Shown one piece after another: positions 1,866-25,730 of a stretch of DNA of 64,000 nt. Position 1 is the first letter of the stretch, and each line of letters begins with the position of its first letter. The stretch comes from Marinifilum sp. N1E240. Its GTDB lineage: Bacteria; Bacteroidota; Bacteroidia; Bacteroidales; Marinifilaceae. A model generated the notes under the pieces. That model did no database searches and was not told the DNA's origin. It saw only the letters and a program-made list of their open reading frames with translations. The stretch covers positions 310,001 through 374,000 of the forward strand of contig NZ_WHKF01000002.1 of the NCBI RefSeq assembly GCF_009295825.1. The letters are read 5' to 3'. The position numbers were made by a program, and so were the translations under genes.

Positions 1866-4800
1866 ATGAAGAAATGCTATTTACGAAATCTTCATTCAAG
1901 CTTAGCCAACCCATTAAGCTTTGGAAGAAAGATTGGAAGTCTAGCGTTAATGTTTGCTGTAATGGTTCTTCCATTAGCTGCAAATGCAAACGTTGACAAA
2001 GTGTCCGATGACAATTCAGCAATTGCTGTTCAAAAAACTGTTACGGGTACGGTAACTGAAGAATCAGGAATGTCATTACCTGGTGTATCTGTTGTTGTAA
2101 AAGGTACTACTGTTGGGACAGTAACAGATGTTGAAGGAAATTTTGAAATCGCTGTTGACAATTCAGGAATCTTGGTGTTTAGTTTTGTTGGTATGACAAC
2201 ACAAGAAATTACGGTTGGTTCGCAATCAGTAATTAATGTTGTTATGGCAGCTGATGCTCTACAGGTAGACGAAGTTATCGTTACTGCTTTAGGTATTAAA
2301 AGAGAGAAGAAGGCTATCGGTTATGCTGTTCAAGATGTAAAATCTGAAGTTTTAACTCAAACGGGTAGTTCAGATTTAGCTACATCTTTACAAGGTAAAG
2401 TTGCTGGGGTACAAATTAGCCAGTCAGGTGGTGGTGTTGGTGGTACATCTAGAATTGATATCCGTGGATCTAGTTCATTGCTTGGAAATGATGAGCCATT
2501 ATGGGTTGTTGATGGTGTGCCGTTTAGTAATGGAAATAGTCGCGATGGTAGCGTTTGGGGTGGAACATCTCGCGCAGGTGGTGCTTTTGATTTGAATCCT
2601 GAGGATATCGAATCAGTTTCGATTTTGAAAGGACCTAATGCTGCTGCTCTTTATGGTGAGCGTGGAGGTAATGGTGTTGTATTGGTTACCACTAAAAAAG
2701 GAACAAGAGGTCAAGGATTAGGTATTTCTTACTCGGGGAGTTATACAATTTCGGAGGCTGCTTATATGCTTGATTTACAGAATAGGTATGGTCAGGGAAA
2801 TAATGGGGCATACGATAAGAATGCAACAGCTTCATGGGGACCTGAGATGAATGGTCAAATGTTAGAATCATGGACTGGTGAAAGTATTGCTTATGAAGCT
2901 CAGAAAGATCGTTTAAAAGATTTCACAAGAACCGGAACAAACCAAAAGCATAGTGTTGCTTTTACAGGGGGTAATGATGATGGAACTTATCGTGTTTCTT
3001 TGGGGAAAGATATCTTGAATGGGATTTATGAAGATCATAAGGTGGAAAAATTAACCTTTGATTTAAGAGCTGATTACGATATCAACAAGTGGTTAAATGT
3101 AGATACTAAAATCTCTTTCTTTAATACAAAAGGTAATGAACGACCTGAAATAGGAAATTATAGTTACGTTTCTTATTTCAATAGCATGCCTATGAATATC
3201 CGCAATAAAGATTTAGATCCTGGTTATAATATTATTGGAGGACAGCATGTTGAGAAGTTGTATACTACAGCAAATGCGAATTATAGAAATCCATATTTTC
3301 TTCAGGCTCAAACAACCAATAAAGATGAGAAGAATAGAACTTTTGGTTACGTAGCTGCTAATATAAAATTAACTTCTGATTTAAAAGCGAAGTTTAAGTA
3401 TGGTATGGATAACTATAGTTTTGAAGCATTGGAAGGCTATTTGTATGCTGATAATGTTGATGCTAGTAGACCAAATTATAATCCTTCTCAATTGAATTTT
3501 AAAGAGGAGAATTATGAATTTTTATTAAGTTATAACAAGGAGATTAATGAAGACTTTACTATCGGCTTAAATTTAGGAGCTAATAGTATGAAAAGTAGAA
3601 TTAAAGAGTTGTCCTCAACATCTGGTAGATTAACTTCTGAGAATGATTTCTTTTTGGGAGCAGGATCAAACATTAAATCAGCAGAAAGAATAACGAAGAA
3701 AGAAGTTCGTTCAATTTATGGATTTGGTCAGGTTGCATACAAAAACATACTATTCCTTGATTTTACAGCTCGTAAAGATTGGTCTTCTACTTTAACTTCG
3801 AAAACTATTGATATGGATAATGGATATTTTTATCCTTCGATTAGTTTAAGTGCATTGGTTTCTGATATGGTTGAAATGCCAGAGTGGATCTCTTTTGCAA
3901 AAGTAAGAACTTCTTGGGCAAGATTAGGAAAAGCAACAGATCCTTACTTGGCAGCCGGTCAGGCATTTACTATCGGTAATTGGAATTATAATCTATCTAC
4001 AGGAAATGTGCCAGAACAAGGAGTTCAGCAAGGTCTTAAGCCAGAGGAATCAGATTCTTATGAGATTGGCTTTGATTTGAGAATGTTCCAGAATAGAATA
4101 GGAATTGATTTTACTTATTATAATGAGGTAACAAAGAATCAAATTGGATATTTAGAGGCTGTTCAAAGTACTGGTTATTCTGAAATTTTATCAAATATTG
4201 GTGAAGTTCTGAACAAAGGTTTTGAAGTAATGGTATCTACTGTACCTGTTAAAACTAATGATTTAACGGTTGGACTGAATTTCAACTTTGCTAAGAATAA
4301 AGGTACACTCGAAAAACTTAGAGATGAAGTGCCAAGAGTTGATCATGGTATGGGAGTTTATTCGTATTTAAAGCAGGATCTAGGACAAATTGTTGGTAGT
4401 ATATATGATCGTAATGAAAATGGTGATATTATTATTGACGAGAATGGTTTAATGACTACAGCGCAGGGAGATAATCATGTAATTGGTAATTTACAGCCAG
4501 ATTGGACTGGCTCTATTAATCTGAGCGTTGATTATAAAGGATTATATATGTCAGCTTTAGTTTCTGTTCAGCAAGGTGGCGATATTCTTTCTTCATCGGA
4601 AAGAAGTGCGGTAAGTGCTGGTACTGCAGATAGAACTAATGTTAACAATCGTATTGCTCTATTTGCAGATGGTGTTACAATGGACGGAGGTTCAAATACT
4701 ACGATTATTTCAGCTGAGGAATATTGGAGACAATTATCAAAAGTTGATGAAGAATTCATTTATGATGCTTCTCATATGAAATTAAAGGAGTTGGCTATTG

Positions 4801-5024
4801 GTTATAACCTTCCAAAATCAATTTTGAGTAAAATTCCTCATAATCCAATTAAATCTGCAAGAGTTTCATTGGTAGGTAGAAACTTATTCTATTTCTATAA
4901 AGATACTCCGGGAACTGCACCAGATGCAAGTGCTTACAGTACTGAATATGCTGCGCAAGCGTTTGATTTCTCTCCGGTTCCAGCAACCAGAACTTACGGA
5001 TTTTCGCTTAATGTTGGATTTTAA
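1866..5024 (+). CDS. SusC/RagA-family TonB-linked outer membrane transporter
   Basis: The 1052-residue protein imports oligosaccharides across the outer membrane with energy from TonB. The signal peptide ends near residue 41 (ANA). A carboxypeptidase-regulatory-like beta domain follows at about 58-130 (TVTGTVTEESGMSLPGVSV). The plug domain is at about 135-275 (starting VDEVIVTALGIKREKK), then a 22-stranded barrel ending in an aromatic-rich C-terminus (YGFSLNVGF). The length is typical for SusC. The SusD partner starts 18 bp downstream, so the two are certainly co-transcribed and should form the usual pedal-bin complex. The neighbouring alpha-mannosidases point to alpha-mannose-containing glycans as substrate; this is inferred from context only. 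The operator array at 1737-1807 should control it. Confidence 0.96.
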   Translation: MKKCYLRNLHSSLANPLSFGRKIGSLALMFAVMVLPLAANANVDKVSDDNSAIAVQKTVTGTVTEESGMSLPGVSVVVKGTTVGTVTDVEGNFEIAVDNSGILVFSFVGMTTQEITVGSQSVINVVMAADALQVDEVIVTALGIKREKKAIGYAVQDVKSEVLTQTGSSDLATSLQGKVAGVQISQSGGGVGGTSRIDIRGSSSLLGNDEPLWVVDGVPFSNGNSRDGSVWGGTSRAGGAFDLNPEDIESVSILKGPNAAALYGERGGNGVVLVTTKKGTRGQGLGISYSGSYTISEAAYMLDLQNRYGQGNNGAYDKNATASWGPEMNGQMLESWTGESIAYEAQKDRLKDFTRTGTNQKHSVAFTGGNDDGTYRVSLGKDILNGIYEDHKVEKLTFDLRADYDINKWLNVDTKISFFNTKGNERPEIGNYSYVSYFNSMPMNIRNKDLDPGYNIIGGQHVEKLYTTANANYRNPYFLQAQTTNKDEKNRTFGYVAANIKLTSDLKAKFKYGMDNYSFEALEGYLYADNVDASRPNYNPSQLNFKEENYEFLLSYNKEINEDFTIGLNLGANSMKSRIKELSSTSGRLTSENDFFLGAGSNIKSAERITKKEVRSIYGFGQVAYKNILFLDFTARKDWSSTLTSKTIDMDNGYFYPSISLSALVSDMVEMPEWISFAKVRTSWARLGKATDPYLAAGQAFTIGNWNYNLSTGNVPEQGVQQGLKPEESDSYEIGFDLRMFQNRIGIDFTYYNEVTKNQIGYLEAVQSTGYSEILSNIGEVLNKGFEVMVSTVPVKTNDLTVGLNFNFAKNKGTLEKLRDEVPRVDHGMGVYSYLKQDLGQIVGSIYDRNENGDIIIDENGLMTTAQGDNHVIGNLQPDWTGSINLSVDYKGLYMSALVSVQQGGDILSSSERSAVSAGTADRTNVNNRIALFADGVTMDGGSNTTIISAEEYWRQLSKVDEEFIYDASHMKLKELAIGYNLPKSILSKIPHNPIKSARVSLVGRNLFYFYKDTPGTAPDASAYSTEYAAQAFDFSPVPATRTYGFSLNVGF

Positions 5025-5042
5025 TTGATAAAGAAATTAGTT

Positions 5043-6605
5043 ATGAAAAAAATTAATATAATATTATTCGCATTAGGGTTAATTATCCTGGGTAGTAGTT
5101 GCTCCGATGATTTCGGAGATATCAACACCCCTTCTGATGCAACAACGTCGGTAGAGCCTAAGTTTTTATTTAATCCATTGGTTCAGGCTGTATTTGATAA
5201 TTATCAACGTAATGTAAACCTTTATCCTGACTTGTATTCTCAGTATTGGGCGAATACTGTTTCTGGATTCGGTTCGCCACGTTACGAATATGTTGATGGA
5301 TGGATAGGGAATCAATGGAAAGAGCATTATACAAAAGATTTACGTCGTGCGAATTCAATTCAGGATCTTTACGGTGAAGATCCAGCATATGTTGATGCTG
5401 TAGCTATTAAAGAAATTTGGATGTGTTACTGGTGGTCTAGAATGACTGATACTTACGGTGATATACCTTATTTTAATACGAATTTAGCAGAAGCTGTTCC
5501 TTACAATAGCCAGCAGGAAATTTATACTGACTTGTTTGCCAGATTGGATGCTGCAATTAATGCAATTACTGGTAATGTAGATCAATATAAGTATGATGAT
5601 GGTTATGATTTGATATATGATGGAGATGTAATGCAATGGCAAAAATTTGGTAACTCATTACGTCTAAGATTGGCAATGCGTATTTCGAATGTTGATCCTA
5701 CAAAAGCTCAAGCAGAAGCTCAAGCAGCTGTTAGCGGTCCAGGTGGATTGTTGGCTAGTAATGATGATGTTGTAAGAGTACCTATGTGGAGTCAAGGGTG
5801 GTATGATTATTTACACCAAATGGCATGGAATTGGAACAATATCCGTATGTCAAAAACCTTCTCAGATTGCATGTATGATCAATCTACTGCAGGGGAAGAT
5901 CCTCGTGCACCAAAGTGGTTTGCATACCAAGTAGAAGGTGAGCCAGTAACAAAAGAAGTAGCAGGTTTTGATCGATACAATGGAATTGAGAATGGTTATA
6001 ATCTTGTTCCAAGTAATTCTGATGAGAATTTTGCAACAATAAATTTGGAAGGTGGATACATCGATTTCGTTGGTAATGGTGCAGAAGATGCAATGTATTG
6101 TCCAGTAATGTTTTATTCTGAAGTTCTGTTTTTACAATCAGAGGCGGCAATGAGAGGTTATATTTCTGGTGATGCTAATGCATTATATGTAGAAGGAGTT
6201 CAGGCGTCTATGGATTATGTTGGTGTTGACGCAACCGCAGCAAGTGATTATATTGCCGGCTTGCCAACTCTTTCAGGTGCTACCGAAGCTTCATTGAAGC
6301 AGTTAATTACACAAAAATGGGTTGCTAATTTCCCTAATGGAGTTGAGGGATGGGCTGATTTCCGTAGAACGGATTACCCTGATGTTACTCTTCCAAAAGA
6401 TGGTGTAAGCGGTAGTTCAACAGTGGCTTCTGGTACTTGGGTAAAAAGAGTTCGTTACCCAGATAATGAGCATTTACAAAATCAAGCTAATATGCCTTCT
6501 TCTCAAAATACATTGGATACCGATAGAATGGATATCCGAGTATGGTGGGATACTACTAATACCAAAGATAAAGATGGTAGTGGTTTAATGAATAGCAATT
6601 TGTAA
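5043..6605 (+). CDS. SusD-family surface glycan-binding lipoprotein (SusD-like_2 type)
   Basis: The 520-residue lipoprotein starts at ATG 5043; an upstream TTG at 5025 would break the signal peptide and is rejected. The type II signal ends in LGSSC at residue 20, and the acidic SDDFGD after the cysteine matches the Bacteroidota lipoprotein export signal for surface display. The start of the mature protein (DINTPSDATTSVEPKFLFNP) and the tryptophan-rich helical body resemble the SusD-like_2 family rather than classical SusD. It should cap the SusC barrel and bind the incoming glycan. It sits between susC and the LamG lipoprotein (23 bp downstream) in one operon. Confidence 0.93.
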   Translation: MKKINIILFALGLIILGSSCSDDFGDINTPSDATTSVEPKFLFNPLVQAVFDNYQRNVNLYPDLYSQYWANTVSGFGSPRYEYVDGWIGNQWKEHYTKDLRRANSIQDLYGEDPAYVDAVAIKEIWMCYWWSRMTDTYGDIPYFNTNLAEAVPYNSQQEIYTDLFARLDAAINAITGNVDQYKYDDGYDLIYDGDVMQWQKFGNSLRLRLAMRISNVDPTKAQAEAQAAVSGPGGLLASNDDVVRVPMWSQGWYDYLHQMAWNWNNIRMSKTFSDCMYDQSTAGEDPRAPKWFAYQVEGEPVTKEVAGFDRYNGIENGYNLVPSNSDENFATINLEGGYIDFVGNGAEDAMYCPVMFYSEVLFLQSEAAMRGYISGDANALYVEGVQASMDYVGVDATAASDYIAGLPTLSGATEASLKQLITQKWVANFPNGVEGWADFRRTDYPDVTLPKDGVSGSSTVASGTWVKRVRYPDNEHLQNQANMPSSQNTLDTDRMDIRVWWDTTNTKDKDGSGLMNSNL

Positions 6606-6628
6606 TAATCCTAAATCTTTAAGAAGAA

Positions 6629-8488
6629 ATGAAAGTATTTAATATAAATATTAAAATGTGGTCTTTCATAGCTGCGTTAGTAATGGCTTTTGCTTTTACA
6701 AGTTGTGATGATGACGATAAAGTGGGTGGTTTTACTTCTGCCTCACTGGACACCTTAATCGCTGAAGCGGAAAATTTAATCGCTAATAGCGAAGAAGGAA
6801 TTAATGCTGGTGATTACCAGCCAGGTTCTATTGAAACATTGCAAAGTGTAGTAACATGGGTTCAGTGGAAAATAGATAATGCTAAATCTCAAAGCGATCT
6901 TGATGATGCAACTGTAAAGTTACAGGCATCGATTAATAATTTTCTTGCGAGTACTGTTGCAGTAGCAATGCCTTGGATTCAGCAGGAAAATGATACATGG
7001 ATTCAGATTTCGGATAATATTAAGCCTGTTTTTAACGAAAGTTTTACTATTGAAACTCAGATTTATGTTGTTGACTTAACACAAAAAGGTTACTCAAACA
7101 ATATTTTTGCTACTGAGCAAGATGGTCCTGATAGTGGTTTTGTTATTCGTTATTTTAGCGATGGTGTTATTCACCTTAATGTGGGTACTGCTGATGGTTG
7201 GAGAGATGTTAAAACTGCTGCTGGTGTTATGAAAGCAGGTGAGTGGATGCATATTGCCTTTGTAAACGAAATCACAAGTCAAAAGCTATACGTTAATGGT
7301 ACTGAAGTTTTATCACAAACTGAGACATATTTACCAGGTGCTGATAAAAGTTTTGTTCTTGGTAATGGACCAACTTGGACAGATCGTATTGTAAATGCTT
7401 TGATGAAAGACGTAAGAGTATGGAAAGGTGCACGTTCTGCTTCAGAGATTGCTGATAATAAAACAGCAACATTAAATGGAACAGAAGAAAATCTTGAAAT
7501 GTTCTTGCCATTAAGTGCAGATTTAGGTTCAGAGTTTAAGGATGTAACTGGTAATTACACTGCGAAATTTCAAGGAAAAATTGAATGGGTTGCTGAACCA
7601 CCAGTAATTGTACTTGATAAGACTGGTCTGGAAACTGCAATTGAAGAAATGGAAGCTTTCAAAGCTGAGATTGTAGAAGGTGATCAGGATGGAGATTATC
7701 CTGTTGGAACAATTGCTTATATCGATGAGTTAATTGTAAATGCTAATACTGTATTAAGTGAAGCTACTCAGCAAGCGAAATTGGATGATATGATTAAAAC
7801 TTTATCATCTAAGATTAAATTGATTAATTCAATGTTAGTTGCAGATACGGATGGTGTTTTAATTGATCGTGACAATGCTGATGCAGTTGGTTTTAGAATT
7901 ACGCCTAACTATACACCTCAAGGTGACTATACAGTAGAATTTAATGTGAAAGTTAAATCTCTATTTGGATATGGTACTGGTGAGTTCTTCAATAATGGTA
8001 ATTATGGTATCTGGGTATATGGTTACGATGAGTTAACTGAGGAGAATGTATTGAACTCAGGTGGACTTTGGAACTTTACAAACGCAGGTAGCGGATGGCA
8101 AGGACCTAAAGCAGATCCTCTTTCAATGAAGACAGGAGAATGGCAACATGTTGCTATTGTTCATGACAATACTGCCAGAACTACAACTTTATTCGTAGAT
8201 GGTGAAGAAAAAGGTGTTCAAACTGATATTGGAGCTCCAGAAGTTTCAGGTTGGGGTGAAATGTGGCTTGGTAATGGCTGGGGTAAAATGGATGGTTATA
8301 TGAAAGACTTCCGCTTATGGGATGTTGCTCGTGACGCTGCAGATTTAGATGCAGACATCGATGGTACTGAAACTGGATTAAATGTTTACTTCCCATTAGA
8401 TAAAGTTAATGGTGTGAAGTTCTCAGATAAAACAGGAAATTATCAAGGTGATATGAGAGGAATCTCATGGAATACTGTTGAAGATTAA
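6629..8488 (+). CDS. Surface glycan-binding lipoprotein with duplicated FIVAR-like/LamG modules
   Basis: The 619-residue lipoprotein has a type II signal ending in FTSC, followed by four aspartates (DDDD), a strong surface-export signal. It is built from two copies of the same two-part module. Each copy is an acidic helical FIVAR-like segment (about 40-113 and 332-405), then a LamG/concanavalin beta-sandwich (about 115-325 and 408-617). In both LamG copies the phrases GEW-x-H-(V/I)A and MKD-(V/F)R-(V/L)W recur in the same places. The position right after SusD matches that of surface glycan-binding proteins in other loci. No catalytic motif was seen, so binding is the likely role. A terminator follows at 8505-8526. 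Confidence 0.85.
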   Translation: MKVFNINIKMWSFIAALVMAFAFTSCDDDDKVGGFTSASLDTLIAEAENLIANSEEGINAGDYQPGSIETLQSVVTWVQWKIDNAKSQSDLDDATVKLQASINNFLASTVAVAMPWIQQENDTWIQISDNIKPVFNESFTIETQIYVVDLTQKGYSNNIFATEQDGPDSGFVIRYFSDGVIHLNVGTADGWRDVKTAAGVMKAGEWMHIAFVNEITSQKLYVNGTEVLSQTETYLPGADKSFVLGNGPTWTDRIVNALMKDVRVWKGARSASEIADNKTATLNGTEENLEMFLPLSADLGSEFKDVTGNYTAKFQGKIEWVAEPPVIVLDKTGLETAIEEMEAFKAEIVEGDQDGDYPVGTIAYIDELIVNANTVLSEATQQAKLDDMIKTLSSKIKLINSMLVADTDGVLIDRDNADAVGFRITPNYTPQGDYTVEFNVKVKSLFGYGTGEFFNNGNYGIWVYGYDELTEENVLNSGGLWNFTNAGSGWQGPKADPLSMKTGEWQHVAIVHDNTARTTTLFVDGEEKGVQTDIGAPEVSGWGEMWLGNGWGKMDGYMKDFRLWDVARDAADLDADIDGTETGLNVYFPLDKVNGVKFSDKTGNYQGDMRGISWNTVED

Positions 8489-8504
8489 ATCTTATCAAAT
8501 ATTG

Positions 8505-8526
8505 GGAGCCGTTGTAAGGCGGCTCC
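8505..8526 (+). terminator. Terminator of the SusC-SusD-LamG unit
   Basis: A 7-bp perfect stem GGAGCCG/CGGCTCC with an 8-base loop is followed by TATTTTCTG. It lies 16 bases after the LamG lipoprotein stop codon. It probably ends or weakens transcription before the two GH92 genes, so binding proteins may be made in excess over enzymes. Confidence 0.65.
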
Positions 8527-8723
8527 TATTTTCTGTTAAATTATTAAAATAATAGTCTACCCTTATCAAGTTTAGGCTGTTTATATAATTTCAAGGTATG
8601 CTTCCGCCTTAAAGAGAAGGATTTTTTATAGCCTTTTTAATAAAAAAGGTGTATTAGATTGAATATTCGAAAGCCAAGAGCTTCAATATATATGCTTAAA
8701 ACTAAACCAGAAAGTACAACCAA

Positions 8724-11006: not shown

Positions 11007-11087
11007 CAATTTAATACGAATGATTAGTTCAATATAGATTTAAATAAAACTGAAACACAAATCAGTTAATAAACAAGACTCAATAAA

Positions 11088-16986: not shown

Positions 16987-16988
16987 TT

Positions 16989-18995
16989 ATGAATAAGGTA
17001 ATAATTGCAATACTGGTATTACTATTTTTTAGTGCTTGTGGTACGATAGACCATGCAGATCTAAAATCACCTGATGGTAATATTGGTTTTGAGTTGAAAG
17101 TTAATGAGAGTGGACAAATGTATTATACTGTTCATGTTGAAAACAATGAAGCTATTACATCTTCAAGGCTGGGACTAATTTTAAAAAGTGATTCTATTTT
17201 TAGCAATGGATTAAAGATTACTGAGATCCAAAGAGAGACTAAAAATGAAGAATGGAAGCCTGTTTGGGGACCTAATCATACGATTGTGGAAAACTACAAT
17301 GAAATGATAGTATCCATGAGAAATCATGATAATAAAGAATTGAATTTGTATGTTCGGTTATTTGATGATGGATTAGGGTTTAGATATGAAATACCGAAGC
17401 AGAAAGGAACTGACAGTATTAATATCATTAATGAATTAACGGAGTTCAACATTACAAATAATGGAACTGCATGGACTATTCCAGCCAATTTCGAAAGCTA
17501 CGAAATGCTTTATAGAACCACTAAAATTGATGAGGTGAAGAATGCCAATACTCCTGCAACTTTTAAGACTGTTGATGGTAACTATATAAGCATTCATGAA
17601 GCCAATCTTACTGATTATGCCGGAATGACATTGAAAAATACTGGAGAAACACATTTCCAGGCGAACCTTGTGCCTTGGCCTGATGGAATTAAGGTGAAAG
17701 CAAAAGGGGCAATTATCTCTCCATGGAGAACCATTACAATTACTAAGTCGGCTGCAGGTTTGGTTGAATCCAACTTAATTCAGAATTTAAATGAACCATG
17801 TAAATTAGAGGATACCTCTTGGATTCAGCCAATGAAATACATTGGAATTTGGTGGGGAATGCATTTGGGAGTTGAAACCTGGACAATGGGACCTAAGCAT
17901 GGAGCTACCACTGAGAATATGAAAAGATATATTGATTTTGCTTCAGAAAATGGAGTTCATGCAGTTTTAGCAGAAGGTTGGAATACTGGTTGGGAAAATT
18001 GGGGAAAACCCAGAGCTTTCGACCAACAAACACCTTATGCCGATTTTGATTTCGACGAATTGGTGAAATATGCAAAATCAAAGGATGTAGAATTAATAGG
18101 TCATCACGAAACAGGAGGCGATTACATTTTTTATGAAGAGTGCATGGAAGATGCCTTTGCTAAATTGCATGATAATGGAATTAGAACTTTAAAGACTGGT
18201 TATGCTGGTCCAATTCCAAATGGACACTTTCATCACGGGCAAAAAATGGTACAACATTACAGAAAGGTTGTTGAAACAGCTGCCAAATATCACTTGATGA
18301 TTGATGCGCATGAACCAATAAAGGCTACAGGAATTAGTCGTACTTATCCAAACATGATGACTCGTGAAGGTGCTCGTGGAATGGAGTGGAACGGATGGAG
18401 TGAGGGAAATCTACCAGAGCATCATGTAATTTTACCATTTACCAGATGTTTGGGAGGTCCTATTGATTACACTCCTGGAACATTCGATATTCTGTACAAA
18501 AACAGAAAAGAGTACATCCAATGGAATAGTAATGACAAAGGAAATAGTCGTGTGAATACGACTCTGGCAAAACAGCTAGCACTTTGGGTTTGTTTGTACA
18601 GTCCATTGCAAATGGCTTCTGATTTGGTAAGCAATTACGAAGATCAGCCAGCATTTGAATTTTTCGAGAAACTACCGGCAGATTTTGATGAGTCGAAGGT
18701 TCTTCTTGCTGAAATTGGAGATGTTTATTCTGTAGCCAGACGAAAAGGAGACAACTGGTATATTGGAACAATCACAGATGAGAACAGTAGAAATGTGGAA
18801 ATTGATTTGTCCTTTTTAAAGGATGGCAAAAAATATATGGCTAGTATTTTTGCTGATGGAAAGGATGCAAGTCTGGAAAACAATCCAACGGATATTGAAA
18901 TTACGGAGTTAACTGTTGATTCTAAAAGCAAATTATCTGTAAAAATGATAGAGAGTGGAGGACAGGCAGTTGTAATTGCTCCAATTGAGAATTAA
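16989..18995 (+). CDS. GH97 alpha-glucosidase, inverting type, lipoprotein
   Basis: The 668-residue lipoprotein has a signal ending in FFSAC. An N-terminal beta-sandwich (about 25-270) precedes a TIM barrel and a C-terminal all-beta domain. Three glutamates mark the inverting (SusB-like) GH97 subgroup: Glu374 in GHHETGGD, Glu442 in DAHEPIKATGISRTYPN and Glu466 in ARGMEWNGW. Their spacing (68 and 24 residues) matches the catalytic Glu set of SusB. Retaining alpha-galactosidases of this family use an Asp nucleophile elsewhere. SusB-type enzymes cleave alpha-linked glucose, so with GH65 it gives the locus two alpha-glucosidases. It is the last gene of the GH125-GH65-GH97 operon. Confidence 0.94.
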   Translation: MNKVIIAILVLLFFSACGTIDHADLKSPDGNIGFELKVNESGQMYYTVHVENNEAITSSRLGLILKSDSIFSNGLKITEIQRETKNEEWKPVWGPNHTIVENYNEMIVSMRNHDNKELNLYVRLFDDGLGFRYEIPKQKGTDSINIINELTEFNITNNGTAWTIPANFESYEMLYRTTKIDEVKNANTPATFKTVDGNYISIHEANLTDYAGMTLKNTGETHFQANLVPWPDGIKVKAKGAIISPWRTITITKSAAGLVESNLIQNLNEPCKLEDTSWIQPMKYIGIWWGMHLGVETWTMGPKHGATTENMKRYIDFASENGVHAVLAEGWNTGWENWGKPRAFDQQTPYADFDFDELVKYAKSKDVELIGHHETGGDYIFYEECMEDAFAKLHDNGIRTLKTGYAGPIPNGHFHHGQKMVQHYRKVVETAAKYHLMIDAHEPIKATGISRTYPNMMTREGARGMEWNGWSEGNLPEHHVILPFTRCLGGPIDYTPGTFDILYKNRKEYIQWNSNDKGNSRVNTTLAKQLALWVCLYSPLQMASDLVSNYEDQPAFEFFEKLPADFDESKVLLAEIGDVYSVARRKGDNWYIGTITDENSRNVEIDLSFLKDGKKYMASIFADGKDASLENNPTDIEITELTVDSKSKLSVKMIESGGQAVVIAPIEN

Positions 18996-19007
18996 TTTAC
19001 CTTTTCA

Positions 19008-19078
19008 TTTGATTAATGATTCATTTGATGGATTAATCTAAATATTAATCATCATTTAATCATAAAGGGCTTAATTTG
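19008..19078 (+). promoter_or_regulatory. Second copy of the ATTAAT-box operator with -7 element
   Basis: TTTGATTAATG (19008-19018) and AATATTAATC (19041-19050) occur with the same 22-base spacing as at 1737-1779. Further boxes are ATTAAT at 19032 and ATTTAAT at 19054. TTAATTTG at 19071-19078 matches seven of eight bases of TAnnTTTG and lies 63 bases from the array start, the same distance as in the first copy. It should drive the GH92-MFS-symporter-GH130 operon from a start near 19085. Confidence 0.6.
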
Positions 19079-19101
19079 AATTATAGATTAGAAATTAGAT
19101 A

Positions 19102-19143
19102 ACCGATCGGGAAAGAGCTTGGCTAGCGAAAATCCCGTTCGGT
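19102..19143 (+). ncRNA. Leader hairpin upstream of the third GH92 gene
   Basis: ACCGATCGGGA (19102-19112) pairs with TCCCGTTCGGT (19133-19143) with one mismatch and a 20-base loop, followed by ATGTTTTTAAC. It lies in the predicted 5' leader, about 118 bases before the start codon. It could be a weak terminator/attenuator, an mRNA stabiliser, or the terminator of a small leader RNA. Function unknown. Confidence 0.4.
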
Positions 19144-19261
19144 ATGTTTTTAACAACCACGAACTCAACAAAACCTAAATTGATGAAACGAACATGAATT
19201 TTAACATTCTAAATTACATACAAGAGAATGATTAAAATTTATTGAGAGTTCCATCTGGTAA

Positions 19262-21517
19262 ATGAATATAAATTTTAAACAGATGAAGCGCTTATTAGGA
19301 ATTTCACTTCTATTTTTACTTTGTACAAATGGCTTTAGCCAATACACAGAATACGTCAATCCCTTTATTGGAACTACTAATTTTGGAACAACGAATCCTG
19401 GTGCTATAGTGCCTCGAGGAATGGTTTCAGTTACTCCGTTCAATGTTTCAGGATCCGATATCAATACTTGGGATAAAGATGCCCGATGGTGGTCTACACC
19501 ATATTCCTGGGACAATACTTTTTTGACAGGTTTCTCGCATGTAAATTTGAGTGGCGTTGGTTGCCCTGATTTGGGAGTTATTCTTTTGATGCCGACAACA
19601 GGAGAGGTAAATGCAAATCACAAGGAATACGGATCAATTATGAAAAATCAGGAGGCTACTCCGGGTTATTATGCTACGGATCTTGAAAAGTATGATATTA
19701 AAACCGAATTGAGTTCTACTCTACGAAGTGGAATTAGTCGATACACTTTTCCAGAAGGGAAATCGAATATCCTTTTGAATTTGGGATTAGGATTGACAAA
19801 CGAATCGGGAGCAAAAGTTCGAATTGTAAACAATCGAGAGATTGAAGGCTCTCGAATGACAGGATCCTTTTGCTATAACGATGGATCGGAAAGAACTGTT
19901 TATTTTGTTGCAAGATTTAGCAAGGAAGCTGAAGAGTTTGGAACATGGAAAAAGATGCCTGAAATGCAGGCTGAATCAGCTTGGAGTGATACGGATGGTC
20001 AATTCAAGTACTACCCAAATTTCTCTCAGGAAATGTATGGTGATGAAGTTGGAGCATTTTTCACTTTCAATACCAAAGAGCAAGAACAAATTCTTGTAGA
20101 AGTTGGTGTTTCCTATGTAAGTATTGAAAATGCAAGATTAAATTTGGAAACAGAATCGAACAATTTTGATTTTGAAAAGACAAGAACACAAGCTGAGCAG
20201 GAGTGGAATGATATACTTGGTAGAATCAAGGTAGAAGGTGGAACCGATGATCAGAAAACCATTTTCTATACTGCATTGTATCACACTCAAATTCATCCGA
20301 ACATCATTAACGATGTAAATGGACAATATCCGGCAATGGAATCTTACGAGATTAAAGAAACCAAAGACTGCAATCGTTATACGGTGTTTTCATTGTGGGA
20401 TACCTATCGAAATTATCATCCATTAATGGCTTTGATATATCCAAAAGAACAATTGGATATGGTTCGCTCTATGGTTGATATGTACAAAGAGAGTGCTTGG
20501 TTGCCAAAATGGGAATTGAATTCTATGGAAACTCATGTAATGGAAGGCGATCCGTCCATTCCTGTAATTGTAGATACTTATTTACGAGGATTGACTGATT
20601 TTGACGTGGAAGCTGCCTATGAAGCCATGTACAAATCGGCAACAACCGAAGGAAAGAATAACAAGCTAAGACCAGATATCGATCATTATTTGGCGGAAGG
20701 ATATGTGCCAATTCGCGAGGAATTTGACAATTCAGTATCGCATGCATTGGAATATTATATTGCTGATTGGAATTTAGCACAATTCGCTAAAGCTTTGGAT
20801 AAAAAAGCTGATTACAAGAAATTCTTGAATCAATCTATGGGATACAAGGAGTATTTCGATAAAGAATTCCAAATGATTCGACCTAAAATGGAGGACGGTA
20901 CCTTCCTAAAGAATTTTAATCCTAAACAAGGAGAGAATTTTGAACCTTCGCCAGGATTTCATGAAGGAACAGCCTGGCAGTATACTTTCTGTGTTCCTCA
21001 TGATGTTTACGGATTGAGTAAGCTAATGGGCGGAAAGCGAAATTTCGTGAACAAATTGCAGAAGGTATTCGATGAGGATTTGTTTGATATGGCAAACGAG
21101 CCTGACATTCATTACCCGTTCTTGTTTAACTATTTTAAGGGAGAAGAGTGGAGAGCACAGAAAGAGGTGCGAAATTTAATTGATACCTATTATAAGAATG
21201 CTCCTGATGGTATTCCTGGTAATGACGATTGTGGTACTTTATCTGCATGGATTGTTTATGCTATGACAGGAATGTATCCTGTTTGCCCAGGCGATATGAA
21301 TTATGCTTTAACTGCTCCAGTTTTCGATAAAATCACTATTGAATTGGATCCTGAATTTCATAATGGAAAAACATTTGAAATTCTTACTCACCGTAAGAGC
21401 AAAGATGATTTGTTCATTGAAAAAATGATGATGAATGATAAGAAGCAAAACTCTTATTTCATTAATCACAAAACAATAACTGAGGGAGGGAAATTGGAAT
21501 TTTTTCTTAAAAAATAA
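19262..21517 (+). CDS. GH92 alpha-mannosidase, periplasmic (third copy)
   Basis: The 751-residue GH92 enzyme has an ordinary signal peptide ending in NGFSQ with no lipid cysteine, so it should be soluble in the periplasm. ATG at 19283 (MKRLLGISLL) is an equally good or better start. Signatures are YVNPFIGTTNFGTTNPGAIV, FHEGTAWQYTFCVPHD with the probable acid Glu, NEPDIHYPFLFNYFKGEEW, and GNDDCGTLSAWIVYAMTGMY with the probable base Asp. The pocket loop (ANEPDIHY) differs from both other GH92 copies, so a third linkage preference is likely. It heads the operon with both inner-membrane transporters and GH130, which suggests that it releases the sugars which those transporters carry. Confidence 0.94.
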   Translation: MNINFKQMKRLLGISLLFLLCTNGFSQYTEYVNPFIGTTNFGTTNPGAIVPRGMVSVTPFNVSGSDINTWDKDARWWSTPYSWDNTFLTGFSHVNLSGVGCPDLGVILLMPTTGEVNANHKEYGSIMKNQEATPGYYATDLEKYDIKTELSSTLRSGISRYTFPEGKSNILLNLGLGLTNESGAKVRIVNNREIEGSRMTGSFCYNDGSERTVYFVARFSKEAEEFGTWKKMPEMQAESAWSDTDGQFKYYPNFSQEMYGDEVGAFFTFNTKEQEQILVEVGVSYVSIENARLNLETESNNFDFEKTRTQAEQEWNDILGRIKVEGGTDDQKTIFYTALYHTQIHPNIINDVNGQYPAMESYEIKETKDCNRYTVFSLWDTYRNYHPLMALIYPKEQLDMVRSMVDMYKESAWLPKWELNSMETHVMEGDPSIPVIVDTYLRGLTDFDVEAAYEAMYKSATTEGKNNKLRPDIDHYLAEGYVPIREEFDNSVSHALEYYIADWNLAQFAKALDKKADYKKFLNQSMGYKEYFDKEFQMIRPKMEDGTFLKNFNPKQGENFEPSPGFHEGTAWQYTFCVPHDVYGLSKLMGGKRNFVNKLQKVFDEDLFDMANEPDIHYPFLFNYFKGEEWRAQKEVRNLIDTYYKNAPDGIPGNDDCGTLSAWIVYAMTGMYPVCPGDMNYALTAPVFDKITIELDPEFHNGKTFEILTHRKSKDDLFIEKMMMNDKKQNSYFINHKTITEGGKLEFFLKK

Positions 21518-21551
21518 AAAACATAACATTCTAATATTAGTAATAAAATAG

Positions 21552-22844
21552 ATGTCAAAAACGAATAAAATACAAAAACACCCAGCTACTTGGATTCCAA
21601 CTGCATATTTTGCGATGGGTTTACCCTTTATTGCTATAGCTCAGGCTTCAGTGCTGATGTTTAAGAGTTTTGGAGTATCCGATTCTTTAATTGCATTTTG
21701 GACTTCACTTATCATGTTACCCTGGACATTAAAGCCGTTATGGAGTCCAATGTTAGAAATGTTTAAAACAAAAAAGCACTTTGTAGTTGCAACCCAACTT
21801 GTAACAGGCTTATCATTTGCTCTGGTGGTGATGACTTTACCATTAGATAGTTTTTTTACATATTCTATTGCTTTGTTAGCAGTTGTTGCCTTTAGTGGTG
21901 CAACACACGATATTGCTACTGACGGAGTTTACCTGAGTGTTTTATCAGGGAAAGAACAAGCAAAATATATTGGATGGCAAGGAGCTTCGTATAATTTGGC
22001 GAAAATCTTAACTGCTGGTGCTTTTGTTTATTTAGCAGGTGTTCTTGAGGAACGCTTTGGAGTACTACATGCGTGGATGGTTGTTATGGCTACCTACTCG
22101 ATAATTATGATTTCGTTAGCATTGTATCATATTAAAATGTTACCATCGGGAGGAAATGCAAGCAGTGAGGTTACTTCATTCAACGAGGGATTTAAAACTT
22201 TGTGGGATGTTATCAAAACCTTTTTCCAGAAAAAATATATTGGTTGGTTTATTTGCTTCATTATTGTATATCGTTTTACCGAAGGTTTTGCTATTAAAAT
22301 TGCCCCTTTGTTTTTTAAAGCAGCAATCGAAGATGGAGGTTTAGGGCTTAGTACTTCACAAATTGGACTTATTTATGGTGTCTTTGGTTCTGCAGCTTTT
22401 GTTTTGGGTTCAATTTTAGCAGGTTATTATATTTCAGCAAGAGGCTTAAAAAAATCTTTATTTACATTGGTTTGTATTTTTAATGTCCAATTTATTATTT
22501 ACGCTCTATTGGCCATTTATCGCCCGGAGAGTTTATTTTTAATTGGATCAGCTGTTGTTGTTGAATATTTTGTTTATGGTTTTGGTTTTGTGGGTTTAAT
22601 GCTGTTTATGATGCAACAGGTTGCTCCAGGAAAATATAAGATGGCTCACTATGCATTTGCTACTGGAATCATGAATTTGGGTATTATGATACCGGGTATG
22701 GTAAGTGGTTTTATGAGTGATTGGTTGGGTTATAAATTGTTTTTTATATGCATTCTCGTTGTTATAATTCCATCTCTTCTGGCAGCAAAATATGTCCCTT
22801 TTGTTCATTCAGAAGAAAGCGAAGCTGATGAAAATGAAAAATAA
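21552..22844 (+). CDS. MFS permease, AmpG/PAT-like
   Basis: The 430-residue inner-membrane protein has about 12 hydrophobic segments. The start, PTAYFAMGLPFIAIAQASVLMFKSFGV, and the loop LIMLPWTLKPLWSPMLEMF resemble AmpG and its relatives in the PAT branch of the major facilitator superfamily. AmpG carries an amino-sugar disaccharide across the inner membrane. In this operon, ending with a Man-GlcNAc phosphorylase, the natural guess is uptake of Man-beta-1,4-GlcNAc or a related short oligosaccharide; this is inference from context. It lies 34 bp after GH92 and 16 bp before the symporter gene. Confidence 0.85.
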   Translation: MSKTNKIQKHPATWIPTAYFAMGLPFIAIAQASVLMFKSFGVSDSLIAFWTSLIMLPWTLKPLWSPMLEMFKTKKHFVVATQLVTGLSFALVVMTLPLDSFFTYSIALLAVVAFSGATHDIATDGVYLSVLSGKEQAKYIGWQGASYNLAKILTAGAFVYLAGVLEERFGVLHAWMVVMATYSIIMISLALYHIKMLPSGGNASSEVTSFNEGFKTLWDVIKTFFQKKYIGWFICFIIVYRFTEGFAIKIAPLFFKAAIEDGGLGLSTSQIGLIYGVFGSAAFVLGSILAGYYISARGLKKSLFTLVCIFNVQFIIYALLAIYRPESLFLIGSAVVVEYFVYGFGFVGLMLFMMQQVAPGKYKMAHYAFATGIMNLGIMIPGMVSGFMSDWLGYKLFFICILVVIIPSLLAAKYVPFVHSEESEADENEK

Positions 22845-22860
22845 ATTTTATTTTTAGTAA

Positions 22861-24723
22861 ATGAATTTATCTACACTCGATCTATCCATAATTGTAGGAT
22901 ACATTATCTTAACCATTTTCATAGGTTATTTTCTTTCTAATAAAGCATCAAAAAATCTTTCCAATTACTTTTTGGGAGGAAATAAAATACCATGGTATAT
23001 GCTTGGAATTTCCAATGCATCAGGCATGTTCGACATTACTGGAACCATGTGGACGGTTACCATTTTGTTTGTTTATGGTTTAAAATCGGTTTGGATTCCC
23101 TGGCTTTGGCCCGTTTGGAATCAAATTTTTTTAATGATGTTCCTGGCAGTTTGGCTGCGAAGGTCGAATGTAATGACAGGTGCCGAATGGTTAAAAACCA
23201 GATTTGGAAATGATAGAGGATCACAATTATCACATTTAATAGTAGTACTGTTTGCGATTGTCAGTGTTATTGGATTCATCACCTACGGATTTGTTGGCGT
23301 TGGTAAATTTGCTCAAACATTTTTCCCTTGGGATTTAAAAACTCAAATTTCAGGATTAATAATTAGTTCTGAACACATGTATGCCATTGTAATAATGGGT
23401 ATAACAACACTTTATGTGATTAAGGGAGGAATGTATTCAGTTGTATTTACCGAGGTACTTCAATTCCTGATTATGACCATTGCCTGTATTCTAGTTGGTG
23501 TAATTGCGATTTCATTGGTAACACCCGAACAGGTGACAGCAGCTATTCCTGCAGGTTGGAAAGATGTTTTCTTTGGCTGGAACCTGGATCTGAATTGGGA
23601 TCATATTATACCAGCAGTTAACAACAAGATTGATACAGATGGATATTCACTATTCTCGGTATTAATGATGATGATGATTTTTAAAGGAATGTTGGTAAGT
23701 ATAGCTGGTCCTGTTCCGAGTTATGATATGCAACGAATTTTATCAACTGAAACTCCAAAGGATGCTGCGAAGATGAGTGGTATTGTTTCCTTGGTATTGT
23801 TTATTCCTCGTTATTTAATGATAGCTGGTTTAGCAGTTTTGGCACTGGTTTATTTGGCGCCAGAGTTTAATAAAATGGGCGATAATATCGATTTTGAAAT
23901 GGTATTGCCTTATGCCTTAAATAATTTCATCCCAACAGGAGCCAAAGGATTATTACTTGCAGGTTTAGTTGCAGCATTCATGTCAACATTTGCAGCAAAT
24001 GTAAATGCTGGTCCGGCTTATATTGTTAATGATATTTACAAGAAGTTTATCAATCCGAATGCATCGCAAAAAAAATACATTAGAATGTCTTATTTGGCAT
24101 CTTTTGCTGTAGTTGCAATAGGTATTTTCTTTGGTTTTTTTGCTGAAAGTATCGATACTGTAATGAAATGGTTGGTAGGTGCTTTATTTGGAGGATACAC
24201 AGCATCGAATTTATTGAAATGGGTTTGGTGGAGATTTAACGGATATGGTTACTTCTCGGGAATGGTAGCAGGTTTGTTAGCTTCTCTAATTGCACCCTTG
24301 GTTTTTTCTGAAGTATCACCAATATATGCTTTCCCATTTATTTTCTTGTTTGCATTTGCGGCATCAATAATTGGAAGTTTGGTAACCAAACCTGAGCCCG
24401 ATGAGGTGTTGATAAAATTCTACGATAGTGTTCGCCCTTGGGGTTTTTGGAAGCCTGTTTATCTGAAATTGAAAGAACAGAAACCAGAAGCTAAACCAAA
24501 TAACAATTTTTGGAGAGATATGATGAACTGTACCATTGGTACGGGGTGGCAGATGATGCTGGTATTGATACCAATATTTCTTGTAATTGGTGAGTACATG
24601 TCCATGACTTGGGTGATTTTAATATTTATTGTATCAAGTATAGTACTGTATTTTACCTGGTACAAGAAATTGGAAGATTATCCTTTAGATTACAAGTTGC
24701 CAATTAAGGAAAATAAAGAATAA
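22861..24723 (+). CDS. Sodium:solute symporter (SSS family), probable sugar uptake
   Basis: The 620-residue protein has about 13-14 membrane segments. It begins LDLSIIVGYIILTIFIGYF and has FLGGNKIPWYMLGISNASGM, the region of the SSS family that forms the first core helices and sodium site. It belongs with SGLT-like sugar transporters. In this locus free mannose and glucose from the exo-glycosidases are the expected cargo. The long C-terminal extension (KPEPDEVLIKFYDSVRPWGF and two more helices) is common in Bacteroidota members. It lies 16 bp after the MFS gene and 38 bp before GH130. Confidence 0.9.
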   Translation: MNLSTLDLSIIVGYIILTIFIGYFLSNKASKNLSNYFLGGNKIPWYMLGISNASGMFDITGTMWTVTILFVYGLKSVWIPWLWPVWNQIFLMMFLAVWLRRSNVMTGAEWLKTRFGNDRGSQLSHLIVVLFAIVSVIGFITYGFVGVGKFAQTFFPWDLKTQISGLIISSEHMYAIVIMGITTLYVIKGGMYSVVFTEVLQFLIMTIACILVGVIAISLVTPEQVTAAIPAGWKDVFFGWNLDLNWDHIIPAVNNKIDTDGYSLFSVLMMMMIFKGMLVSIAGPVPSYDMQRILSTETPKDAAKMSGIVSLVLFIPRYLMIAGLAVLALVYLAPEFNKMGDNIDFEMVLPYALNNFIPTGAKGLLLAGLVAAFMSTFAANVNAGPAYIVNDIYKKFINPNASQKKYIRMSYLASFAVVAIGIFFGFFAESIDTVMKWLVGALFGGYTASNLLKWVWWRFNGYGYFSGMVAGLLASLIAPLVFSEVSPIYAFPFIFLFAFAASIIGSLVTKPEPDEVLIKFYDSVRPWGFWKPVYLKLKEQKPEAKPNNNFWRDMMNCTIGTGWQMMLVLIPIFLVIGEYMSMTWVILIFIVSSIVLYFTWYKKLEDYPLDYKLPIKENKE

Positions 24724-24761
24724 AAAGAGATTGAAAAAATAAAAGATATAAACGAAATAAG

Positions 24762-25730
24762 ATGACTAGTAAAGCTAATATGCCTTGGGAAGACAGACCG
24801 AAAGGTTCTGCAGATGTGATGTGGAGATATTCTCAGAATCCTGTAATAGGGAGGTATGATATTCCATCATCTAACAGTATTTTTAACAGTGCTGTTGTGC
24901 CTTTTGAAGATGGTTTTGCAGGTGTTTTCCGTTGCGATAACAAAGCGGTTCAAATGAATATTTTTGCCGGTTTTAGTAAGGATGGAATTAACTGGGAAAT
25001 CAATCATGAGCCGATTGAAATGGAAGCTGGTAACACCGAGATGATTGAATCGGATTACAAATACGATCCTCGTGTTTGTTGGATTGAAGATCGCTATTGG
25101 ATTACTTGGTGTAATGGTTACCACGGACCAACAATTGGAATCGCTTATACTTACGATTTTAAAACTTTTCATCAGTGCGAAAATGCCTTTTTGCCTTTTA
25201 ACAGAAATGGTGTTTTATTTCCGGAGAAAATTGATGGAAAGTATGCAATGCTGAGTCGTCCTAGTGATAATGGTCATACTCCTTTTGGTGATATTTACGT
25301 TTCCTATAGTCCTGACATGAAATATTGGGGAGAGCATCGTTGTGTAATGAAAGTATCCGATTTTACGGATAGTGCATGGCAGTGTACTAAAATTGGTGCG
25401 GGATCTGTACCTATTCGCACCAAGGAAGGTTGGTTGATGTTTTATCACGGAGTAATTAATACTTGCAATGGATTCCGTTATTCAATGGGAGCGGCGCTTC
25501 TCGATCTTGAAAATCCGGATAAGGTATTGTATCGCTCAAAACCATATTTATTGGCTCCAGCGGCTCCTTACGAGCTAATGGGTGATGTTCCGAATGTGGT
25601 TTTCCCATGTGCTGCACTTAACGAAGAAAATAAAGTAGCAGTTTACTACGGAGCAGCCGATACGGTTGTTGGTATGAGCTTTGGTTACATGGATGAAATC
25701 ATCGATTTTATAAAGAAGAATTCATTATAG
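24762..25730 (+). CDS. GH130 beta-1,4-mannosyl-GlcNAc phosphorylase (GH130_2 type)
   Basis: The 322-residue cytosolic protein has no signal peptide and shows a five-bladed propeller pattern. Asp102 in [10 protein letters not shown] is the probable proton donor; [20 protein letters not shown] and [13 protein letters not shown] are typical of the short GH130_2 group. GH130_1 mannosylglucose phosphorylases are about 390 residues long. GH130_2 enzymes split Man-beta-1,4-GlcNAc, the core of N-glycans, with phosphate to give mannose 1-phosphate and GlcNAc. This is the strongest pointer that the locus targets N-glycans rather than plain mannan. Last gene of its operon; a strong terminator follows. 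Confidence 0.92.

What the first reader, a model, noticed from the sequence alone, without database searches (positions are those of the whole stretch)
1866..25730. Candidate locus for glucose-capped high-mannose N-glycans
Seen: SusC/SusD, surface lipoprotein, three GH92, GH125, GH65, inverting GH97, AmpG-like MFS, SSS symporter, and short cytosolic GH130 with YKYDPRV. Known: GH92 and GH125 remove alpha-mannose, GH130_2 phosphorolyses Man-beta-1,4-GlcNAc, SusB-type GH97 and hydrolytic GH65 remove alpha-glucose. Inference: the combination would strip Glc1-3Man5-9GlcNAc chains such as precursors or unprocessed algal and fungal N-glycans. A combination of GH65 and GH97 with a GH92/GH125/GH130 set is not one I know as described.
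Basis: partly seen in the sequence, partly recalled or inferred. Interest (0 to 1): 0.78.

Follow-up and report, generated by a model that had tools for sequence, protein, structure and literature searches.

The report
Locus for digesting glucose-capped N-glycans
A bacterium of a marine family carries a conserved set of genes that looks built to import and dismantle the mannose-rich sugar chains of eukaryotic glycoproteins, including two enzymes that would first remove the glucose caps left on immature chains; if so, it is a food-gathering counterpart of our own cells' chain-trimming glucosidases.

Summary
Observation confirmed: twelve same-strand genes (1866-25730) encode SusC, SusD, a LamG lipoprotein, GH92a/b/c, GH125, GH65, GH97, two transporters and GH130. 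GH65 passes NCBIfam's kojibiose-hydrolase cut-off and keeps FjGH65A's catalytic and Glc-alpha-1,2-Glc-binding residues. GH97 resembles inverting alpha-glucosidases, GH130 Man-GlcNAc phosphorylases, GH92b the alpha-1,2-mannosidase BT3990. In 9 of 9 same-family genomes with a close GH65 it sits beside GH97 in the same locus. Five relatives (one without GH65) carry PNGase F inside the locus. Three flavobacteria have GH97-GH65 in large loci with close GH130, GH92, glycosylasparaginase-like and GH20 genes, two of them with PNGase F. A single clade for the GH65s of such loci is rejected (p-AU 0.005, group chosen after seeing the tree), which points to repeated recruitment. Not shown: any activity, or how this genome releases the glycan (no PNGase F, GH85 or PF00704 GH18 found). 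GH65 with GH97 is already known from branched-dextran loci. Verdict: a glucose-trimming variant of a known kind, the high-mannose N-glycan locus. N-glycan target about 0.9; glucose-cap removal about 0.65.

The parts
3..1436 (-). N-terminal part of a divergent gene (841 aa in full, continues beyond the window): Kelch-like beta-propeller, then a TM segment and a winged-helix-like cytoplasmic end; probable regulator
   Evidence: Kelch hits; full gene L168:10915-13437; homologue next to susC in 9 of 9 same-family clusters; TM and winged helix read by eye from a homologue, not a Pfam hit
1866..5024 (+). SusC-like TonB-dependent outer-membrane transporter
   Evidence: TIGR04056 661.5 bits, cut-off 368
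5025..6605 (+). SusD-like surface lipoprotein (true start probably an ATG a few codons in)
   Evidence: PF12741/PF12771; lipobox GSSC
6629..8488 (+). LamG_3 lipoprotein, probable glycan-binding protein
   Evidence: PF13385 130.9 bits; lipobox FTSC
8724..11006 (+). GH92a, predicted alpha-1,3-mannosidase type (NED motif)
   Evidence: nearest PDB 7zgm 623 bits, the plant N-glycan alpha-1,3-mannosidase, closely followed by 6f91 and 6f8z; motif
11088..13385 (+). GH92b, predicted alpha-1,2-mannosidase (PW, HE, DED motifs)
   Evidence: nearest PDB 2wzs and the 2wvx/2ww1 sequence, 1144 bits; 2WW1 is BT3990; motifs
13521..14948 (+). GH125, predicted alpha-1,6-mannosidase
   Evidence: PF06824; nearest PDB 3on6 and 2p0v BT3781; family specificity from PMC10154615
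14917..16986 (+). GH65, predicted hydrolytic alpha-1,2-glucosidase (kojibiose-hydrolase type)
   Evidence: NF053734 977.3 bits, cut-off 800; nearest PDB 7fe3 637.8 bits; nine FjGH65A site residues kept
16989..18995 (+). GH97 lipoprotein, predicted inverting alpha-glucosidase
   Evidence: nearest PDB 5hqc/5hq4/5hqb, then 8wg0: 595-498 bits, against 216 for the retaining enzyme 5e1q
19262..21517 (+). GH92c, alpha-mannosidase of unsure linkage (NDD motif, altered loop)
   Evidence: PF07971; nearest PDB 6f8z BT3130 411 bits; MANEPDIH where GH92a has HGNEPSHH
21552..22844 (+). AmpG-like MFS transporter
   Evidence: PF07690, TIGR00901 126.6 bits below cut-off 350; absent from 4 of 9 related clusters
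22861..24723 (+). SSS-family sodium:solute symporter
   Evidence: PF00474; in 9 of 9 related clusters
24762..25730 (+). GH130, predicted Man-beta-1,4-GlcNAc phosphorylase (subfamily GH130_2 by nearest relatives; subfamily name recalled)
   Evidence: nearest PDB Uhgb_MP 4udg 514.5 bits, then 5ayd and TM1225 1vkd

Best explanation
This is a SusC/D-type utilization locus for high-mannose N-glycans of eukaryotic glycoproteins, with an added glucose-trimming step. Proposed working: the SusC/SusD/LamG proteins bind and import the oligosaccharide or glycopeptide. In the periplasm GH65 removes the terminal Glc-alpha-1,2-Glc cap and GH97 removes the Glc-alpha-1,3 units. GH92b, GH92a, GH92c and GH125 then strip alpha-1,2-, alpha-1,3- and alpha-1,6-mannose. 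The remaining Man-beta-1,4-GlcNAc crosses the inner membrane through MFS or SSS, and cytosolic GH130 phosphorolyses it to mannose-1-phosphate and GlcNAc, with the ROK kinase gene upstream a candidate for phosphorylating a product sugar. Shown by sequence: family membership, catalytic residues, conserved gene order, and N-glycan-specific neighbours in relatives. Inferred: linkage specificity, order of action, location, and the identity of the glucose-capped substrate.
For: GH65 is over the kojibiose-hydrolase cut-off and keeps the general acid and base, the replaced phosphate site and the W/E/T residues that bind kojibiose in FjGH65A. FjGH97A hydrolyses isomaltose, nigerose and kojibiose (PMC10316084); the second-closest distinct GH97 in the PDB, 8wg0, is that enzyme by recall, so a GH97 could take the two inner alpha-1,3 glucoses. 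GH130 is closest to Uhgb_MP. Nine of 9 same-family genomes with a close GH65 have SusC, SusD, GH92a/b/c, GH65, GH97, SSS and GH130 together. GH130 at 88% identity or more occurs in those 9 plus G421 out of 34; G407 has one at 64%. PNGase F lies in the locus of G398, G412, G423, G421 and Labilibaculum filiforme, and GH20 in G412 and G423. NORP129, NORP150 and Aquimarina sediminis carry GH97-GH65 with GH130 at 78-79%, GH92b- and GH92c-like genes, GH20, GH29 and a PF01112 glycosylasparaginase-like gene, with PNGase F in NORP129 and NORP150 and a phosphomannose isomerase gene in Aquimarina. The AU test rejects one clade for these GH65s (p 0.00495; group chosen after the tree), which points to at least two recruitments.
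Against: No activity was measured. The window's genome has no match to PNGase F PF09112, GH85 PF03644 or GH18 PF00704. Its one PF16141 BT1044-like GH18 lies elsewhere, and its catalytic stretch reads DGVCFSYE, without the usual aspartates (by eye, motif recalled). G421 has the locus, with PNGase F and GH97, but no GH65. Nearly all of 86 GH65s compared keep the same pocket, and most lie in other settings, including loci with GH13, GH31 or GH66, so the pocket does not show an N-glycan substrate. L137, the GH65 closest to the window outside Marinifilaceae (66% over a partial ORF), sits by GH13 genes. A GH97 is on record as an alpha-galactosidase in alpha-mannan breakdown (PMC10154615). Mature glycoproteins mostly lack the glucose cap (established knowledge). 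The eukaryotic enzyme that removes the same alpha-1,2 glucose does not cut kojibiose (PMC8626586), so activity on kojibiose need not predict activity on the cap.
Confidence: 0.65

Rival explanations
1. The locus degrades high-mannose N-glycans, but GH65 and GH97 handle a separate alpha-glucan (branched dextran or kojibiose-containing oligosaccharides) met together with the glycoprotein, or scavenge glucose from other imported sugars.
For: A GH65+GH97 pair is described in the F. johnsoniae branched-dextran locus (PMC10316084). GH65 relatives lie next to GH13, GH31 or GH66 in other genomes.
Against: No GH31, GH66 or GH13 is among the 12 window genes, and every ORF of at least 120 aa between SusC and GH130 in the stretches of the 9 related clusters read matches a window gene, PNGase F or GH20. 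GH65-GH97 stays inside the GH92/GH130 set in 9 of 9, and GH65s of such loci do not form one clade.
Confidence: 0.15
2. The glucose removed is not the ER cap but another alpha-glucose decoration of glycoproteins, such as Glc-alpha-1,2-Gal on collagen hydroxylysine or an algal-specific glucosylation of oligomannose.
For: The animal hydroxylysine glucosidase is also a GH65 and is the third-best distinct protein in the PDB search. Marinifilaceae were predominant in deep-sea animal and plant tissue enrichments (PMC9765461, passages).
Against: The window GH65 keeps the kojibiose-type +1 residues, which PMC8626586 says differ between FjGH65A and the eukaryotic GH65 hydrolases. No beta-galactosidase family is among the 12 genes.
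Confidence: 0.12
3. The target is an alpha-mannan (fungal or diatom) rather than an N-glycan.
For: GH92 and GH125 are also core parts of alpha-mannan loci (PMC10154615; PMC6298971).
Against: No GH76, GH99 or sulfatase among the 12 genes. GH130_2-type enzyme, and PNGase F or glycosylasparaginase-like genes in related loci.
Confidence: 0.05

Closest known systems
B. thetaiotaomicron high-mannose N-glycan locus PUL72
   Same: SusC/D uptake and three GH92 alpha-mannosidases acting in sequence on high-mannose glycans (PMC11180146, PMC10154615; passages)
   Different: PUL72 is described as encoding four enzymes, a surface GH18 and three GH92. The window locus adds GH125, GH130, GH65 and GH97 and lacks a releasing enzyme of its own.
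F. johnsoniae branched-dextran locus FjDexUL (FjGH65A, FjGH97A)
   Same: Same two enzyme types side by side, hydrolytic kojibiose-type GH65 and an exo-acting GH97 alpha-glucosidase
   Different: FjDexUL has GH66 and GH31 dextranases and no mannosidases. The window locus has neither dextranase and has GH92, GH125 and GH130.
Group 2 (type II) PNGase loci of gut Bacteroides for plant N-glycans
   Same: Type II PNGase next to a GH92 alpha-1,3-mannosidase, with GH130, GH3 and GH29 among neighbours in some species (PMC9522356, passages); the G423 PNGase is nearest type II structures and window GH92a is nearest 7zgm
   Different: No GH65 or GH97 was mentioned in the passages read
ER glucosidases I and II (N-glycan quality control)
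   Same: Would remove the same glucose residues, alpha-1,2 and then alpha-1,3
   Different: Other enzyme families (GH63 and GH31, recalled); catabolic here rather than quality control

Membership tests
SusC/D polysaccharide utilization locus | Adjacent SusC/SusD pair with co-directional carbohydrate-active enzymes | tested here: met
SusC/D polysaccharide utilization locus | Linked sensor-regulator | tested here: inconclusive
   Divergent Kelch protein in 9 of 9 clusters; TM segment and winged helix read by eye only
High-mannose N-glycan locus (PUL72 type) | GH92 alpha-1,2- and alpha-1,3-mannosidases | tested here: met
   By nearest structures and motifs; linkage not assayed
High-mannose N-glycan locus (PUL72 type) | Glycan-releasing enzyme in the locus | tested here: not met
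   None among the 12 window genes; PNGase F inside the locus in 5 relatives
High-mannose N-glycan locus (PUL72 type) | Induction by high-mannose glycans such as Man8GlcNAc2 | not testable with these tools
   needs cultures
GH65 kojibiose hydrolase (NF053734, FjGH65A type) | Score over curated cut-off 800 | tested here: met
   977.3 bits
GH65 kojibiose hydrolase (NF053734, FjGH65A type) | General acid and base, replaced phosphate site, W391/E392/T407 | tested here: met
   E483, E626, P585, A586, F635, M341, W402, E403, T418
GH65 kojibiose hydrolase (NF053734, FjGH65A type) | Hydrolysis of Glc-alpha-1,2-Glc | not testable with these tools
   needs assay
Inverting GH97 alpha-glucosidase | Closer to inverting than to retaining members; catalytic glutamates kept | tested here: met
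   595-498 bits against 216; E at HETGG, HEPIK and GMEW conserved in 8 GH97s aligned, the last aligning with the residue changed in 5hqb; roles of these glutamates recalled, SusB numbering not mapped
GH130_2 Man-GlcNAc phosphorylase | Closest relatives Uhgb_MP and TM1225 over the whole length | tested here: met
GH130_2 Man-GlcNAc phosphorylase | Phosphorolysis of Man-beta-1,4-GlcNAc | not testable with these tools
   needs assay
Branched-dextran locus (FjDexUL) | GH66 and GH31 dextranases | tested here: not met
Yeast alpha-mannan locus | GH76 or GH99 endo-enzymes | tested here: not met

The most novel reading that the evidence does not exclude
Marine Bacteroidota evolved, at least twice, a catabolic counterpart of ER glucosidases I and II by recruiting a kojibiose-hydrolase GH65 beside a GH97 into N-glycan loci. 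This lets them eat immature, glucose-capped Glc1-3Man5-9GlcNAc chains from lysed algae, fungi or animals, a pool of N-glycans that loci for mature glycans cannot fully open.
Probability: 0.5. Interest if true: 0.68.

Novelty: new variant of a known kind. Interest (0 to 1): 0.52.

Why it matters
If true, precursor-type glucose-capped N-glycans are common enough in marine organic matter to be worth a dedicated, conserved pathway, and bacteria have their own enzymes for it. It would give a new biological role to the GH65 kojibiose hydrolases, so far tied to dextran, supply tools for trimming Glc3Man9 glycans, and offer a gene marker (GH65-GH97 with GH130_2 and GH92) for this diet in metagenomes.

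Tried and rejected
Considered and rejected: GH65 as a phosphorylase (phosphate-site residues replaced, hydrolase base present); GH97 as a retaining alpha-galactosidase, although a GH97 of that activity is on record in alpha-mannan breakdown: 216 bits to 5e1q against 595 to 5hqc, and 327 bits to the NCBIfam retaining model, cut-off 800; a dextran or starch locus (no GH66, GH31 or GH13); a yeast-mannan locus (no GH76 or GH99). A first wrong query (the GH94 family instead of GH130) told only where the window lies.

Led nowhere: literature searches for the combination (one search was for GH92 specificity) gave no listing or passage that describes GH65 in an N-glycan locus, or GH97 acting on N-glycan glucose; listings were capped, the library is open-access only, and passages of 11 papers were read. 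Searches for a releasing enzyme in the window's genome: no PF09112 (rang in 4 of the 10 genomes searched), no PF00704 (6 of 14 controls ring), no PF03644 (1 of 14 controls rings). One PF16141 protein without the usual catalytic aspartates was found, and four GH20 match pieces that look like three genes elsewhere. Structure prediction and fold search were not used: these families have solved members and model coordinates cannot be read in scripts.

L091 and L093 have the contig lengths of G402 and G423 and are not counted as extra genomes. Context labels in the tree come from blastp to a small reference set, so 'other' means that none of those references was hit. Support for NORP129/150 as sister to the Marinifilaceae clade is 86, not starred. 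The 12-row group given to the AU test was chosen after the tree was seen.


Full report
What is there. The stretch 1866-25730 holds twelve genes on the + strand, with gaps from 266 bases down to a 32-base overlap: SusC, SusD, a LamG_3 lipoprotein, GH92a, GH92b, GH125, GH65, GH97, GH92c, an AmpG-like MFS, an SSS symporter and GH130. Upstream, a divergent gene (3-1436, cut by the window edge) encodes a Kelch-type protein; a homologue has an outer propeller, then a TM segment and a winged-helix-like end, the last two read by eye. Beyond it the genome has ROK kinase, MFS and LacI genes.

What the enzymes are. GH65 scores 977 bits against the NCBIfam kojibiose-hydrolase model, cut-off 800. Its best PDB match is 7fe3, which I take to be FjGH65A, an inverting alpha-1,2-glucosidase: the code is recalled, and the residue numbers given for FjGH65A (PMC8626586, passages) all fit that chain with an offset of three. 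The general acid (E472), general base (E616), the replaced phosphate site (P575, A576, F625, M330) and the kojibiose-binding W391, E392 and T407 are kept, at window residues E483, E626, P585, A586, F635, M341, W402, E403 and T418. Across 86 homologues these residues hardly vary, so the pocket says alpha-1,2-glucosidase but not which larger substrate. GH97 is nearest 5hqc/5hq4 and then 8wg0, and far from the retaining enzymes (PspAG97A and FjGH97A are the recalled names of these entries). FjGH97A cleaves alpha-1,6 best, then alpha-1,3, and also alpha-1,2 and alpha-1,4 glucobioses (PMC10316084, passages). GH130 is nearest Uhgb_MP, 5ayd and TM1225, the GH130_2 set (subfamily name recalled). GH92b carries the PW, HE and DED motifs of alpha-1,2-mannosidases and matches the sequence of 2wvx/2ww1 (BT3990) at 1144 bits. 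GH92a carries NED and is nearest the N-glycan alpha-1,3-mannosidase 7zgm, by a narrow margin over 6f91 and 6f8z. GH92c carries NDD but has an altered loop, so its linkage is open. GH125 is nearest 3on6 and BT3781.

Conservation. Of 34 other same-family genomes searched, 9 have a GH65 at 73-79% identity. In 9 of 9 it lies in the same locus with SusC, SusD, GH92a, GH92b, GH97, GH92c, SSS and GH130, next to GH97 each time. LamG is missing in 1 of 9 (G416) and MFS in 4 of 9. GH125 is inside the locus in 4 of 9, just beyond the regulator in 3 of 9, and not seen in the stretches fetched for 2 of 9 (G425, G416). A close GH130 (88% or more) occurs in those 9 and in G421; G407 has one at 64%. G421 has the locus with PNGase F and GH97 but no GH65 and no SSS. 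The family is Marinifilaceae by inference: G423 contig 1 has the length and GH65 position of Marinifilum flexuosum NZ_RAPQ01000008.1.

Why N-glycans. PNGase F cuts N-linked glycans from asparagine (PMC9522356). It sits inside the locus, between GH92b and GH125, GH20 or GH65, in G398, G412, G423, G421 and Labilibaculum filiforme. The one compared with the PDB (G423) is nearest the type II enzymes 4r4z and 7zgn. G412 and G423 add GH20. Of the 80 named loci kept around GH65 relatives, 7 show GH92 genes in view, all titled Labilibaculum, Marinifilum or Marinifilaceae, and 2 more show GH125 (L095, L097). Reading further out, NORP129 and NORP150 (flavobacterial metagenome-assembled genomes) and Aquimarina sediminis carry long loci with GH92 genes, SSS (in view in NORP129 and Aquimarina), GH130 at 78-79% identity, a PF01112 glycosylasparaginase-like gene, GH20, GH29, GH92b- and GH92c-like genes, and GH97 with GH65. 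NORP129 and NORP150 also have PNGase F (Pfam-confirmed, without the type II N-terminal domain), GH38, GH123 and GH125; the PF01112 gene of NORP150 is split in two ORFs. In NORP129 a GH18 lies between GH125 and GH65; its DGIDLDWEYP stretch looks chitinase-like (motif recalled). In Aquimarina GH97-GH65 follow a phosphomannose isomerase, SusC/D, ROK and NagB/PIG-L genes, about 24 kb from the last GH92, in a same-strand run of genes of which one large ORF (1065 aa) was not assigned.

Evolution. In a tree of 86 GH65s the nine rows of the window's locus type form one group (99, starred) and NORP129/150 are its sister (86, not starred); Aquimarina's GH65 falls in another well-supported group. Holding all twelve together is rejected (p-AU 0.00495; the group was named after seeing the tree, so the p-value is indicative). 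This fits repeated recruitment of an alpha-1,2-glucosidase into N-glycan loci, which is easiest to explain if N-glycans with alpha-1,2-glucose are eaten.

How it would work. The only alpha-1,2-glucose on the standard N-glycan precursor is the terminal residue of Glc-alpha-1,2-Glc-alpha-1,3-Glc-alpha-1,3-Man (established knowledge). GH65 for the first and GH97 for the next two would clear the capped arm, the mannosidases would follow, and GH130 would split the last Man-beta-1,4-GlcNAc in the cytosol. Algal sources are conceivable: Euglena makes the Glc3Man9GlcNAc2 lipid precursor, a Glc3Man5GlcNAc2 precursor is known in a microalga, and Porphyridium, Phaeodactylum and Euglena display oligomannose glycans; the same review says that the glucoses are normally trimmed (PMC7773692, passages).

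What speaks against, or is open. No assay exists. The window's genome has no match to PNGase F, GH85 or PF00704 GH18. Its one BT1044-like GH18 lacks the usual aspartates. Release may therefore rest on a neighbour organism, on import of glycopeptides, or on an unrecognised enzyme. Most GH65 relatives sit in other loci, and the closest one outside Marinifilaceae (L137, partial) is next to GH13 genes, so the N-glycan role is a matter of context, not of the protein alone. ER glucosidase I does not cut kojibiose, a warning that the two activities need not go together. A GH97 alpha-galactosidase is on record in alpha-mannan breakdown, though the window's GH97 is of the other type.

Known or new. High-mannose loci with GH92 sets are known (PMC11180146, PMC10154615; passages), and GH65 with GH97 is known in branched-dextran loci. 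The union of the two was not found in the literature searches made, in an open-access library only. I file it as a new variant of a known kind. Eleven papers were read as passages only, none in full.

Noticed in passing
G421, L179:10066-10911; NORP129, L095:6429-7325; NORP150, L097:7714-8550: An endonuclease/exonuclease/phosphatase-family gene recurs in these N-glycan loci (between GH97 and GH125 in NORP129 and NORP150, before GH92a in G421); role unknown, perhaps a phosphodiesterase for phosphorylated glycans.
   Followed up: partly
window 19262-21517 (GH92c): GH92c keeps the acid and base motifs but has MANEPDIH where GH92a has HGNEPSHH, and is present in all nine related clusters; possibly a new GH92 linkage specificity.
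   Followed up: partly
G000:C11:1003092-1004042 (L182): A BT1044-like GH18 next to SusC/D in the same genome has DGVCFSYE in place of the usual DxxDxDxE; perhaps a glycan-binding pseudo-enzyme.
   Followed up: partly
L179-L180 (G421): A natural variant of the locus with PNGase F and GH97 but no GH65, useful as a control for which glucose residues each enzyme removes.
   Followed up: yes
L035 and L036 (G412, G423): The first search counted one in-frame TAA within the GH65 match of both genomes; the ORFs there start after the match begins, so it probably lies in the aligned N-terminal extension.
   Followed up: no
L188 (G000:C32:376000-395900): A second locus in the same genome with three GH92-like genes, GH3-like and GH97-like genes and a weak SusC-like match, and GH20 pieces a few kb away.
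   Followed up: no
window 35746-36579: Gene with an FRG domain, unrelated to the sugar locus.
   Followed up: no
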